Source: Clostridia bacterium (GTDB lineage Bacteria > Bacillota > Clostridia > Oscillospirales > Acutalibacteraceae). From it: a DNA stretch of 37,457 nt. Below are positions 21,234-36,890 of this stretch, piece by piece. Made by a program: the position numbers and the translations under genes. The stretch is from assembly GCA_017522205.1 (NCBI GenBank), contig JAFWZS010000080.1, positions 1-37,457 of the forward strand, given 5' to 3'. Numbering within the stretch: the first letter of the stretch is position 1; each line of letters starts with the position of its first letter. A model generated the notes under the pieces. That model was not told where the DNA came from. It saw only the letters and a program-made list of their open reading frames with translations, and ran no database searches.

Positions 21234-21380
21234 GTCCAATTGAGTATATATTATATCTTATACACGATCTACCTTATATTAACTTTAATATACTCTGTGT
21301 AGTAATGACTAATTTTTTGTATACACCCATTCAGCTCAGTCCTTTTTTGCGTACACAGGAAACTGCACACTATCCTGATA

Positions 21381-21408
21381 TTGACAAATATGAATTTCTC
21401 CCTAAAAT
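21381..21408 (+). promoter_or_regulatory. Promoter of the sigma4-like/XRE regulator operon
   Basis: TTGACA (21381-21386), 16-base spacer, TAAAAT (21403-21408). The expected start point near 21415 coincides with the LexA-type box at 21416-21429. Confidence 0.7.
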
Positions 21409-21415
21409 AATAAAC

Positions 21416-21429
21416 AGAACAAATGTTCG
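21416..21429. promoter_or_regulatory. LexA-type (SOS) box
   Basis: AGAAC AAAT GTTCG, matching the Gram-positive LexA consensus CGAAC-N4-GTTCG at 9 of 10 fixed bases, with the core palindrome GAAC/GTTC intact. It covers the expected start point of the promoter at 21381-21408. Twelve of thirteen bases equal the perfect box at 34633-34646. Confidence 0.7.
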
Positions 21430-21475
21430 TCTGTGCTTGCAAATTTATCGCATTCAGGAGGATTCAGGAAAAACA

Positions 21476-22087
21476 ATGGGTAACAGTTTCAGTTCAGCAG
21501 ATTTTATTAACGCAAGAGAAGCGTTCATCAGATGGCAAGGAAGTATTGACGACACCGTTGAGGGATATGTGCTGAGAAGCAGAAAAAATGAACTGCGACA
21601 GTTAGTGAAAAAGGTAATTGAAAACGAGCTTTCAGACTATGACAAGGCCATTGTCAATATGCGTTGGTATCAGAACATAACCCCCACAGAAATTGCTGAA
21701 AAATTGGGCGTCGACCGTTCAACGGTGGCAAGACATCTCGATAAAATCAACAACACGGTTTATGAAAAGCTGAAGTACGCCATGGAGTACCGATACGGGA
21801 AAAGCTTCAGCAAGCAGTCAGAGATGATTATCAAAAGCGGTGATGCTTACACCTGCACAGTAAGCTCCGACGACATTTCCGAAAGGCTCAAAAAGCTGAG
21901 AACGCACAACTGTCTTTCTGAAAAAGAGGTTGCTTCTCTTACGGGTATAGAGGAAAAACGACTTTCAGAAATCGAAGAAGCAGGCTCTTCTATGACTATG
22001 ACCGAATTAAAAAAGCTGACCACCTTTTACCGCTGCAGCTCGGATTATCTGCTTTTCGGAAAGGGTATCAGCAACCTTGTGAATTAA
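21476..22087 (+). CDS. DNA-binding regulator: sigma region 4-like HTH fused to XRE-type HTH
   Basis: A 203-residue protein with two different DNA-binding helix-turn-helix parts. Residues about 52-105 resemble sigma factor region 4 (LSDYDKAIVNMRWYQN, then ITPTEIAEKLGVDRSTVARHL). Residues about 134-196 resemble an XRE/Cro HTH (ISERLKKLRTHNCLSEKEVA, then RLSEIEEAGSSMTM and CSSDYLLFGKG). There is no sigma region 2, so it is unlikely to be a working sigma factor by itself. I chose the ATG at 21476 (MGNSFSSADF), 6 bases after CAGGA; the frame is open further upstream through the promoter, which rules out a longer protein. It is followed 13 bases later by a coiled-coil gene. The LexA box at its start point suggests induction by DNA damage. 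Role and targets unknown. Confidence 0.85.
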   Translation: MGNSFSSADFINAREAFIRWQGSIDDTVEGYVLRSRKNELRQLVKKVIENELSDYDKAIVNMRWYQNITPTEIAEKLGVDRSTVARHLDKINNTVYEKLKYAMEYRYGKSFSKQSEMIIKSGDAYTCTVSSDDISERLKKLRTHNCLSEKEVASLTGIEEKRLSEIEEAGSSMTMTELKKLTTFYRCSSDYLLFGKGISNLVN

Positions 22088-34432: not shown

Positions 34433-34591
34433 GCATAAGAAAACGGATTTTGCATTTGTTTTGCGAAATTACCTTTACGGCATTTTTAACAAAAAATCGG
34501 CTTTCTTTTTGACATCCGACAAAAAATATGATAAAATTTAGGCAAAGTCCATTTTTTAGTACACCAAAATAAAATTTATCGAACATTTGTC

Positions 34592-34619
34592 TTGACATTT
34601 CGATTTTTTCTGCTATAAT
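34592..34619 (+). promoter_or_regulatory. Promoter of the small membrane protein gene
   Basis: TTGACA (34592-34597), 16-base spacer ending TGC, TATAAT (34614-34619): consensus boxes plus an extended -10. The LexA box lies just downstream, and a half-site CGAAC with a degraded partner lies upstream at 34580-34591. Confidence 0.85.
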
Positions 34620-34632
34620 TCTAAGTGTAATA

Positions 34633-34646
34633 CGAACGAATGTTCG
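34633..34646. promoter_or_regulatory. Perfect LexA (SOS) box
   Basis: CGAAC GAAT GTTCG, an exact match to the Gram-positive LexA consensus CGAAC-R-N-R-Y-GTTCG. It starts about 7 bases past the expected transcription start, where a bound repressor would block it. A second partial inverted site (TTCGATAACGTTCGA) overlaps at 34643-34657. Confidence 0.87.
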
Positions 34647-34675
34647 ATAACGTTCGACACAGGAGGAACAAAATT

Positions 34676-34924
34676 ATGTTTACATTAGGAACTTTCAGTG
34701 CATTTTTCTGGACACTCGCAAGCATCATTCTTCTTATGCTTGTTTTTGAAGACAAGCTTATCGCTCTTGAGGAAAAGTATGACAGAAAAAGGGAGACAAA
34801 AAAGAGAGCTAAAAAGGCTGCCCAAATAAAAAGCAGAAAAGCCGCTGCTCAGGTTAAAAGAATGCCCACATCAGCAAGAAACGCAAACACAAACAGAAGA
34901 GTAAACAGAAATTACGCAGCATAA
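34676..34924 (+). CDS. SOS-controlled small membrane protein with basic tail, 82 residues
   Basis: One membrane helix at about residues 5-25 (FSAFFWTLASIILLMLVF), a short charged helix (EDKLIALEEKYDRKRETKK) and a very basic, Ala/Lys/Arg/Asn-rich tail to the end. No LysM domain and no family I can name. The start at 34676 has AGGAGG 9 bases upstream. The perfect LexA box at the start point says the gene is induced by DNA damage. Small SOS membrane proteins that stop cell division, such as YneA in Bacillus and SidA in Caulobacter, share this size and layout, so that role is a reasonable guess but not shown. The next gene has its own promoter 12 bases on. Confidence 0.83.
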   Translation: MFTLGTFSAFFWTLASIILLMLVFEDKLIALEEKYDRKRETKKRAKKAAQIKSRKAAAQVKRMPTSARNANTNRRVNRNYAA

Positions 34925-34935
34925 TATACTTACCC

Positions 34936-34964
34936 TTGACTTTTTTCGTTGTTTTATGTAAAAT
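34936..34964 (+). promoter_or_regulatory. Promoter of the pseudokinase gene
   Basis: TTGACT (34936-34941), 17-base spacer, TAAAAT (34959-34964), about 40 bases before the start codon. Confidence 0.75.
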
Positions 34965-35003: not shown

Positions 35004-36890
35004 ATGGCTGATAATATAAAATACTGTCCGGGCTGCATGGGTGCTCTCGAAGAGGGCGTAAATGTCTGCCCCGAATGCTTCTACAATATAGAAACAGAAA
35101 ACAACTCCCCTGCTCTTAAAGCAGGTACTATCCTTTCAGGAAGATACCTTATCGGTAAGGTGCTGAATTTTGCAAATGATTCAATCACCTATATCGGCCG
35201 TGACCTTTACTCAGATACGGTTCTCAGCATCGTTGAATTTTTCCCGTCAAAGATTCTTACACGTGAAAATGACGATTGCAACATTACCGTAAAGCTTGGT
35301 TACGACACCATGTTTGAGAACTGCCGTGAAAGCTTCCTCAGTCTCTGGCGTGGCCTCGATATGTTTAAAAGTGATGTTTGTCTTCCTAATGTTGAACAGA
35401 TAATTGAATCAAACGGTACAGTTTACGCTATATCCGTATACCTCGACAGCATAAGCCTCAAGGCTTATTTTGACGAAACGAAAAAGCCACTTTCCTGGGC
35501 AAGAGCTCACAGCGCTTTCAAGCCTGTGCTCGCCTGCCTTCAGAAGCTTCATTCAGCCGGCATTATGCACGGCAACATTTCACCGAGCACCATTCATGTT
35601 GGCTCAGACGGCAAGCTTCACATTATGTCTTTTTCAATTCCTCAGTGCTATTCATCCGTTGAAGAGCTGAGAGTAAGACCCGTTCCCGGCTTCTCTCCCA
35701 TTGAGCTTTTCGGTGAAAACGCAAGCCTTTCTGCTGCCTCAGACGTATACTCGGTTATGGCGCTTCTTTATTATTCAATAACCGGTCTTGTTCCTCCCAC
35801 CGCAACAAAAAGAGCAGTCAAGGACACCATGGTTCTTCCTGCGGCAGTTGCATCAACCCTTTCAAGCAAGGTTATTGACTGCTTTGTAAAGAGCCTTTCT
35901 GTTTATCCCCAGAACAGAATCTCAACTATCGACGAAGTAATCAGCTTGCTTTCAACAATCAGCACCCCGAGAAACGCAGCCTCCCCTGCTGCTCCCGCAT
36001 CACCTGTCGCAGAAGAAGCACCTGCACACGAAGCTCCGCCTGAAGCAGAGGCGGAATACGAAGATGAAATTCAGGATGAACCCTACTACGAAGAAGACGA
36101 TGCTCCCACAAAGAAAGGTAAGTCATCTTCAGGTTCACTTATCACTCTTGCAGTTTCAACCTTCCTCGGTGTTGTAGTAGCCTGCACAGTTCTGTTCACC
36201 GTGCTTTATGCAACCTTCCTTTACAAGTCAATTGATGTACCCGTGCTTGATAATCTTCTCGGTTCATTCAGCTTTCTTCCCATGAACGAGGAAGTTACTG
36301 ACGTTTATACTCCGAATTACGACACATCAACAACGGTAAGTCCTGAAACCACAGAAAAGTCCTATGTGACTGTTCCCGATTTCACAAGTCACACACGTGA
36401 CAGCATCAAGACCAACGAAACCTTTAACGAAAGATTCGTTATCATATACACCGAAGATTACAGTGATGAAGTACCAAAGGATGCTATCATTGCTCAGAGC
36501 CTTGAAAAAGGCGAAAGCGTTCTTTCAGGCACAGAAATCACCGTTGTGGTAAGTCTCGGTGCAAAGCCTATTGAGCTTCCCAATGTTATCGGTATGCAAT
36601 ACAGCAAAGCCGAAAAAGAGCTTAAAGACCGTGGCTTCACAGTAAAAAAGGAAGTTATGGAAAACAAAGGTGGTCACAAGGAAAACGAAGTTTATCTGAT
36701 GGATAAGGTTGCAGGACTTGAATTCGAAAAGGGTACGGAAATTGTGCTTTCGGTATGGGGCAAGGAGCCTGAGACAACCACAAAGGAAACCACAACTAAG
36801 AAAAAAGAAGATACCACAAAAGAAAAAGAAACCTCAACTAAAAAGCAAGAGAGCTCAACCAAAGCCTCAGATGCTGACAATGAAAATTAA
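35004..36890 (+). CDS. Zinc-ribbon / pseudokinase / transmembrane / PASTA protein
   Basis: A 628-residue membrane protein resembling PrkC/Stk-type kinases but without their catalytic residues. Residues 8-25 form a zinc ribbon (CPGC ... CPEC). A kinase fold follows at about 43-320 (SGRYLIGKVL at its start). The VAIK lysine site reads SIVEF, the HRD loop reads HGN (189-191) and DFG reads SFS (209-211), so three key motifs are altered. An acidic linker (EAEYEDEIQDEPYYEEDD) leads to one membrane helix at about 379-404. Outside are two PASTA-like domains at about 455-527 and 530-598 (ELPNVIGMQYSKAEKEL), then a Thr/Lys-rich tail. Likely a cell-wall sensor or scaffold, not an active kinase. The start at 35004 has AGGTG 8 bases upstream. 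Confidence 0.9.
   Translation: MADNIKYCPGCMGALEEGVNVCPECFYNIETENNSPALKAGTILSGRYLIGKVLNFANDSITYIGRDLYSDTVLSIVEFFPSKILTRENDDCNITVKLGYDTMFENCRESFLSLWRGLDMFKSDVCLPNVEQIIESNGTVYAISVYLDSISLKAYFDETKKPLSWARAHSAFKPVLACLQKLHSAGIMHGNISPSTIHVGSDGKLHIMSFSIPQCYSSVEELRVRPVPGFSPIELFGENASLSAASDVYSVMALLYYSITGLVPPTATKRAVKDTMVLPAAVASTLSSKVIDCFVKSLSVYPQNRISTIDEVISLLSTISTPRNAASPAAPASPVAEEAPAHEAPPEAEAEYEDEIQDEPYYEEDDAPTKKGKSSSGSLITLAVSTFLGVVVACTVLFTVLYATFLYKSIDVPVLDNLLGSFSFLPMNEEVTDVYTPNYDTSTTVSPETTEKSYVTVPDFTSHTRDSIKTNETFNERFVIIYTEDYSDEVPKDAIIAQSLEKGESVLSGTEITVVVSLGAKPIELPNVIGMQYSKAEKELKDRGFTVKKEVMENKGGHKENEVYLMDKVAGLEFEKGTEIVLSVWGKEPETTTKETTTKKKEDTTKEKETSTKKQESSTKASDADNEN

What the first reader, a model, noticed from the sequence alone, without database searches (positions are those of the whole stretch)
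34580..34924. A small membrane protein under a perfect LexA box: candidate SOS division inhibitor
The sequence shows consensus -35 and -10 boxes, then CGAAC GAAT GTTCG just after the expected start point, then an 82-residue protein with one membrane helix and a very basic tail. Known SOS cell-division inhibitors (YneA, SidA) are small single-span membrane proteins with unrelated sequences. This one lacks a LysM domain and is not next to lexA, so it may be a new type. The division role is inference from size, layout and control.
Basis: partly seen in the sequence, partly recalled or inferred. Interest (0 to 1): 0.75.

Follow-up and report, generated by a model that had tools for sequence, protein, structure and literature searches.

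The report
DNA-damage-controlled small membrane protein family
A tiny one-helix membrane protein, with no known family, sits under a DNA-damage (LexA) switch that is conserved in many related gut Clostridia; it is a good but untested candidate for the protein that pauses cell division while DNA is repaired.

Summary
An 82-residue single-span protein (34676-34924) has a consensus promoter and a perfect LexA box (34633-34646); lexA, recA and dinB of the genome carry the motif with one mismatch. The protein belongs to an undescribed family seen, in my searches, in one bacterial family. All 22 same-genus genes found by sequence keep the box (19 within 2 mismatches) and a second LexA-like element over the -35. 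Of 106 profile hits, nearly all from other genera, 82 carry a LexA element. A promoter-only search of 21 genomes without a protein hit gave five exact matches, all before a protein of the same build. Most members (93 of 104 counted) end in alanine, as this genome's tmRNA tag does. A genus without detectable LexA keeps the gene but not the box.

A second, LexA-independent regulator is likely.

SOS control is near certain from sequence. The division role rests on analogy with YneA, SosA and SidA and on seeing no LysM-type candidate in ten genomes.

The parts
34676..34924 (+). small single-span membrane protein gene (82 aa, stop included)
   Evidence: found in 22 of 34 same-genus genomes by protein search (own genome included)
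34691..34747 (+). transmembrane segment (about residues 6-24)
   Evidence: hydropathy; 0 of 103 members have a second segment over 1.6; best segment median 2.33, lowest 0.99
34748..34771 (+). most conserved motif, just after the membrane span, E-x-K-L-I-A-[LF]-E (E25 and E32 invariant in A3)
   Evidence: alignments A1, A3
34916..34921 (+). C-terminal Ala-Ala, candidate degradation signal
   Evidence: 22 of 22 same-genus members found by protein search end AA; 71 of 82 LexA-element members of the wider set end in A against 24 of 266 control frames; 3 of the 5 promoter-found members end in A; own tmRNA tag DNNTTVLKAA
34633..34646 (.). LexA box CGAACGAATGTTCG, just downstream of the expected transcription start
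34580..34597 (+). conserved element CGAACATTTGTCTTGACA: one good LexA half plus a degenerate half fused to the -35
34592..34597 (+). -35 box TTGACA
34614..34619 (+). extended -10 box TATAAT
34546..34563 (.). inverted repeat AGTCC-N8-GTACA (family consensus AGTCC-N8-GGACT, 2 mismatches here), centre about 37 bp before the -35; proposed operator of an unknown second regulator
34661..34666 (+). ribosome-binding site AGGAGG
21476..22087 (+). second genus-conserved LexA gene in the window: sigma-70 region-4-like plus HTH_3 protein (203 aa)
21416..21429 (.). LexA box AGAACAAATGTTCG of the second gene
21338..21355 (.). inverted repeat AGTCC-N8-GTACA of the second gene (2 mismatches to the consensus), centre 34 nt before its TTGACA

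Best explanation
The gene is a member of the SOS regulon. LexA sits on a box at the start of the transcript, and probably on a second site over the -35, and keeps the gene off. DNA damage inactivates LexA and the promoter fires. The product is a one-span membrane protein, predicted with a few residues outside and a short conserved E-x-KLIA-F/L-E segment plus a long basic tail inside. It pauses cell division (or a late cell-cycle step) by binding a membrane division protein, and is removed afterwards by a protease that reads its C-terminal alanines (ClpXP-like if the tail is cytoplasmic, CtpA-like if it is outside). A second regulator that binds AGTCC-N8-GGACT upstream of the -35 adds another input. 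Shown by sequence: LexA-type sites and their conservation, single span, basic tail, frequent C-terminal alanine, third conserved element. Inferred: LexA binding and induction, topology, proteolysis, division arrest, activation through the third element.
For: Same motif with one mismatch at recA, lexA and dinB of the genome. Box and -35 element in 22 of 22 same-genus genes, box within 2 mismatches in 19. Box within 2 mismatches in 75 of 106 wider hits against 3.7% of 1420 control windows; -35 element in 46 of 106 against 0 of 1420. Promoter-only search: 5 of 5 exact hits precede a protein of the same build. The genus with a PF01726 LexA in 0 of 5 genomes has no LexA element at the gene. C-terminal Ala in 71 of 82. 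No LysM protein under a LexA box seen in 10 genomes: 23 matches, all in frames of 205 aa or more; best box 3-4 mismatches at the 21 examined. Small membrane inhibitors are reported as the more widespread solution (PMC13396833 abstract and Discussion; also PMC6851548 passages, and PMC4211646 passages).
Against: No experiment and no structure model (tool switched off). Predicted topology is opposite to YneA and SosA, and the charge evidence is mixed: K+R counts are higher after the span in 103 of 103, but net charge of the 15 residues after the span averages -0.2 and exceeds the N side in only 27 of 103. Six of 34 same-genus genomes gave no gene by the searches made, four of them at least 90% complete. 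24 of 106 profile hits have no LexA element. One genus keeps the gene without detectable LexA, so SOS induction is not its whole purpose. In one subgroup (G002, G015) the C-terminal Ala is missing, and so it is in 11 of 82 wider members.
Confidence: 0.55

Rival explanations
1. An SOS-induced membrane-active peptide that slows growth by disturbing the membrane (TisB-like toxin or dormancy factor, recalled analogy) rather than by targeting the divisome.
For: Small, hydrophobic N-terminus, cationic tail, LexA-type control. In the window a minus-strand promoter-like site (34992-34963, 10 of 12) and minus-strand terminator-like stems inside the gene (34850-34818) could frame an antisense RNA.
Against: The antisense promoter-like site is not conserved: 2 of 22 same-genus genes have one of at least 10 of 12, against 45 of 1100 shuffles. 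The best-conserved part is the charged E-x-KLIA-F/L-E segment after the span, not the span itself. A tail of about 50 residues with a kept C-terminal Ala suggests a regulated protein.
Confidence: 0.15
2. An SOS-induced membrane anchor or adaptor for another task, for example holding DNA or a repair or proteolysis factor at the membrane through the basic tail.
For: Net charge after the span +8 on average and about 26% K+R; tail sequence poorly conserved, as for a charge-based contact.
Against: No partner gene was seen to travel with it: in the 12 loci downstream neighbours vary, and only a divergent hydrolase-like gene recurs (7 of 12).
Confidence: 0.22
3. A phage- or defence-linked SOS gene.
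For: SOS control is common in prophages (general knowledge).
Against: No relative found in one scan of viral contigs; one of 61 members has a weak PHROGs match and each of five PADLOC models matches one member weakly; a recurring chromosomal neighbour in the genus.
Confidence: 0.04
4. The box is a chance palindrome and the gene is not under LexA.
For: Perfect boxes occur at 3 places in the assembly.
Against: Conservation.
Confidence: 0.02

Closest known systems
YneA (Bacillus subtilis)
   Same: Single span, SOS-induced, turned over by proteases (CtpA is one of two, cited in PMC6851548 passages).
   Different: YneA has an extracellular LysM domain whose peptidoglycan binding is essential (PMC13396833, abstract); no LysM here, gene not beside lexA, predicted tail inside. 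No YneA sequence was compared directly.
SosA (Staphylococcus aureus)
   Same: 77 aa, no LysM, span near the N-terminus, conserved stretch just after the span, C-terminus linked to turnover (PMC6851548, passages).
   Different: SosA's C-terminal part is extracellular by reporter fusion; here K+R bias predicts the tail inside. No SosA sequence was compared directly.
SidA and DidA (Caulobacter)
   Same: Small membrane proteins induced by DNA damage, sidA through LexA, didA through the activator DriD (PMC4211646, passages).
   Different: Two genes serve the two inputs there; here one promoter appears to carry LexA sites and a second operator. Different phylum; sequences not compared.
DdiA (Myxococcus, XRE co-regulator of the damage response)
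   Same: Precedent for an XRE-type regulator acting beside LexA (PMC12288472, abstract).
   Different: ddiA is induced independently of LexA; the 21476 gene here is itself under a LexA box. No homology tested.

Membership tests
LexA (SOS) regulon of this genome | operator matching those of lexA, recA, dinB at the promoter | tested here: met
LexA (SOS) regulon of this genome | operator conserved in relatives | tested here: met
LexA (SOS) regulon of this genome | induced by DNA damage, bound by LexA | not testable with these tools
   needs experiment
YneA family | LysM domain | tested here: not met
   no LysM match in Pfam for the window protein or any of 61 members
YneA family | extracellular C-terminal part | tested here: inconclusive
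   K+R bias predicts inside; net flank charge ambiguous
YneA family | gene beside lexA (recalled feature) | tested here: not met
   lexA lies on contig C71, the gene on C80
SosA | sequence homology to staphylococcal SosA | not tested
   no SosA sequence was fetched; library scans gave nothing
SOS small membrane division inhibitors (functional class) | small, single span, LexA-type operator | tested here: met
SOS small membrane division inhibitors (functional class) | blocks cell division | not testable with these tools
   needs experiment

The most novel reading that the evidence does not exclude
These Clostridia use a two-key damage checkpoint. One promoter carries LexA sites and an operator AGTCC-N8-GGACT for a separate, LexA-independent activator; it drives a new family of cytoplasm-facing membrane inhibitors. 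A second LexA gene, encoding a sigma-region-4/HTH protein, shares both operators and may be that activator, forming a feed-forward loop. In a genus that lost LexA the second key alone keeps the checkpoint.
Probability: 0.3. Interest if true: 0.78.

Novelty: new variant of a known kind. Interest (0 to 1): 0.62.

Why it matters
I found no description of an SOS division inhibitor for this group of gut and rumen Clostridia (paper searches; open-access library only). A widespread SOS membrane protein family without a convincing Pfam, NCBIfam, PHROGs or PDB relative gives a direct candidate, and its predicted inside-facing tail would be a different way to stop division. An operator shared by two SOS genes, and kept in degenerate form where LexA is missing, makes a LexA-independent damage input in this group testable with one pull-down or reporter experiment.

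Tried and rejected
Family libraries: every match below E 0.01 was seen in one member of 61 only. PDB by sequence: one chance match, E 0.32. Genome-contig scan: 12 named loci from 210 candidate stretches, all titled Clostridia, Ruminococcaceae or Oscillospiraceae MAGs. Order-level search with the 61-row profile: 19 of 395 genomes, all in the window's own family; how many of the 395 lie outside it is not shown. Two hits from other families of the order (G126, G175) lie in longer frames that I read as YidC tails, and G115's is interrupted; I dropped these from the family (L039-L042 in all). The palindrome GTACC-N6-GGTAC in the LexA-less genus was first tried as a replacement LexA motif; it gave no clear regulon and fits AGT[CA]C-N8-G[GT]AC[TA] instead. 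Gene neighbourhood gave no clue to function. An antisense RNA like that of type I toxin loci: a candidate site in the window is not conserved. Paper searches that gave nothing on this gene or operator; PMC3998124 (gut SOS meta-regulon, passages) names MraZ as an SOS division candidate, not this protein, in what I saw.

Limits of the counts: relatives are not independent. The -35 element, the box expression and the degenerate repeat were written after reading the sequences. Three of 22 same-genus boxes exceed 2 mismatches (L024, L032, L034), as does that of G018 (L237). The 106 rows are all rows with E up to 6.0e-4 except four same-genus rows already covered; 30 weaker rows were not fetched; one of the 106 is same-genus (L092). 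The 176 and 116 loci are loci, not genes: several genes were fetched more than once, and the class of 176 includes a few loci without the gene. One search covers 388 kb of the 1.45-Mb own assembly, window included.

Full report
What is there. Contig C80 of a 1.45-Mb, 74% complete assembly is the window. Near its end it carries a gene at 34676-34924 for an 82-aa protein: about five residues, one hydrophobic segment, the motif E-D-K-L-I-A-L-E, and a basic tail ending Ala-Ala. It has a consensus promoter with an extended -10 and a perfect CGAAC-N4-GTTCG box a few bases after the expected start. An in-frame ATG at 34640 lies inside the box; relatives and the ribosome-binding site support the start at 34676.

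Is it a LexA box. In the same genome, boxes with one mismatch stand before lexA (CAAACATTTGTTCG), recA (CGAACATTTGTGCG) and dinB (AGAACATTTGTTCG) (lexA by PF01726, recA and dinB named from their translations). By count alone a perfect box is not rare enough: 3 places in the assembly. So I tested conservation.

Conservation in the genus. A search of 197 genomes with the protein gave 26 with a match, 22 of them in the genus, which has 34 genomes, the window's own included. Of the other four, one (G084) is real by later evidence and three look like chance. All 22 keep a box before the gene, 19 of 22 within two mismatches, and all 22 keep a second element, in most (C/T/G)GAACATTTGTNTTGAC, over the -35, 53-57 bp upstream of the box. 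In an alignment of the 22 upstream regions the conserved blocks are this element, the -10, the box, the ribosome-binding site and one more repeat described below.

Promoter-only test. In 21 genomes without a protein hit (11 same genus, of which nine had been searched only with the single window protein, and 10 of other genera), the -35 element allowing one mismatch gave 9 places in 8 genomes. The five exact places (G002, G015, G018, G031, G033, all same genus) are each followed by a box (within two mismatches in four, four mismatches in G018) and by a small protein that reads as one N-terminal span and a basic tail. Three of these five end in Ala; G002 and G015 end in Ser. Of the four one-mismatch places none precedes such a gene: one stands before a transporter-like gene, one before a tRNA-like stretch, one before a protein that I read as SRAP type, one before nothing clear. 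With one more by profile (G026), 28 of 34 same-genus genomes have the gene. G007, G009, G020, G027, G029 and G030 gave none; of these only G009 and G030 were also searched with a profile.

Wider family. A 23-row profile against 398 genomes of the same bacterial family matched 124 at E up to 0.01, in 51 of 135 genera. I examined all 106 rows with E up to 6.0e-4 outside four same-genus rows already covered. 75 of 106 have a box within two mismatches in 160 nt upstream, 46 of 106 have the -35 element within two mismatches, 82 of 106 have either; 1420 control windows from the same loci give 3.7% and 0. 36 of 45 genera have at least one. 24 rows have neither: five from g52 (below), four from g182, whose best boxes have four mismatches although the two g182 genomes tested have a LexA, and 15 others, several of which look like chance matches or extra copies. 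An order-level search with 61 rows found 19 of 395 genomes, all within the same family. One scan of viral contigs found no relative.

Protein features. In 103 members of at least 50 residues there is one span near the N-terminus and no second one; the weakest best segment scores only 0.99. K+R counts are higher after the span than before it in 103 of 103, which by the positive-inside rule puts the tail in the cytoplasm; net charge of the first 15 residues after the span does not support this, so topology is a prediction. E25 and E32 are invariant in the 61-row alignment. The last residue is Ala in 71 of 82 LexA-element members, and 22 of 22 same-genus members found by protein search end Ala-Ala, against 24 of 266 open frames of 200 codons or more. 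The genome's tmRNA tag is DNNTTVLKAA. A C-terminal Ala pair is what ClpX reads on tagged proteins (recalled), and tail-specific proteases such as CtpA also prefer small non-polar ends (recalled); PMC6851548 passages report CtpA for SosA and cite it for YneA.

A natural contrast. In genus g52, PF01726 at E up to 1e-8 finds no LexA in 5 of 5 genomes, while 24 of the other 25 genomes in that call have one; the exception is from another family. In g52 the gene is kept but has no LexA element and ends in Lys in 5 of 5. The g52 genomes are 74-95% complete, so LexA loss rests on five concordant misses.

The third element. The repeat AGTCC-N8-GGACT starts 35-36 nt before the GAACATTTGT element in 22 of 22 same-genus genes, within two mismatches in all (window copy AGTCCATTTTTTAGTACA, 34546-34563, two mismatches). 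Taken by itself the window copy is unremarkable: 10 matches of this quality in the window, 10.1 expected. Among the 82 LexA-element members of the wider set, 42 have the repeat within one mismatch in 260 nt, against 2 of 610 control windows; 194 draws of permuted arms gave a mean of 0.07 and a maximum of 1. Of 50 cases with a recognisable promoter its centre lies 34-38 nt before the -35 in 33, 42-44 nt in 7, and elsewhere in 10. Two distances about one helical turn apart suggest a protein that touches RNA polymerase (inference). The exact repeat is in 29 of 176 loci fetched for the small gene, duplicates included, and 0 of 116 other loci. With the degenerate form, 24 of 25 lexA loci have no match within one mismatch in 330 nt, one has a match far upstream, and recA and dinB have none. 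g52 keeps a copy in 5 of 5 (AGTACCAATAATGGTACA and similar, read), two to three mismatches from the strict consensus, fitting only the degenerate form, and nearer the -10.

A second gene with the same two operators. At 21476-22087 the window has a 203-aa protein with Sigma70_r4 and HTH_3 matches over cut-off, found in 30 of 34 same-genus genomes. All 30 have a LexA box within two mismatches, 26 within one, 10 perfect. Its promoter carries the repeat, AGTCCTTTTTTGCGTACA, centre 34 nt before TTGACA. In the 60 nt before the -35 of the 30 promoters 12 are within two mismatches and 23 within three; 7 show none. 59 permuted-arm controls give means of 0.14 and 2.8 and maxima of 2 and 9. In 388 kb of the own genome, window included, only these two genes combine repeat, well-placed promoter and LexA box. 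The gene could encode the factor that reads the repeat; nothing here tests it, and four genomes without a small gene found (G007, G009, G020, G030) still have it.

Function. In 10 genomes of good quality, 23 LysM matches lie only in frames of at least 205 aa; at the 21 examined no box within two mismatches was seen, so no YneA-type candidate was seen. lexA in the own genome faces a protein that I read as M23/SpoIIQ-like, not a LysM protein. Apart from SulA, reported SOS inhibitors are often small membrane proteins acting on FtsW or its partners (PMC13396833 abstract and Discussion; PMC4211646 passages; PMC6851548 passages). By layout, control and likely turnover this family fits that class; it lacks YneA's LysM domain and its predicted topology differs. 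The C. difficile LexA regulon paper (PMC4234289, passages) has no occurrence of 'cell division' or YneA in its main text. I put the division role at a little over one half.

Rival check. The window shows a minus-strand promoter-like site after the gene and terminator-like stems within it, as a toxin locus with an antisense RNA might. The site is not conserved: 2 of 22 same-genus genes, against 45 of 1100 shuffles.

Verdict. The division reading is plausible and unproven.

Noticed in passing
window 21338-22087: Second genus-conserved LexA gene: sigma-70 region-4-like plus HTH_3 protein with a LexA box and the same AGTCC-N8 repeat as the small membrane gene.
   Followed up: yes
window 35004-36890: Downstream gene encodes a protein kinase-like domain plus PASTA repeats, with a promoter-like site of its own at 34936-34964; similar proteins follow the small gene in L078, L079 and L082, 3 of 12 loci (my reading).
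   Followed up: partly
genomes G084, G416, G460, G356, G280 (genus g52): No LexA found by PF01726 at E up to 1e-8 in 5 of 5 genomes of this genus.
   Followed up: partly
window 34992-34818, minus strand: Promoter-like site (10 of 12) after the small gene and terminator-like stems within it, on the antisense strand; site not conserved in the genus.
   Followed up: yes
L238 1501-1516: In G063 a one-mismatch copy of the -35 element stands before a protein that I read as SRAP (SOS response-associated peptidase) type.
   Followed up: no
L102, L147 (G050 contig C36): G050 (genus g18) carries two extra hits to the small protein without LexA elements or C-terminal Ala beside one with them (L055).
   Followed up: no
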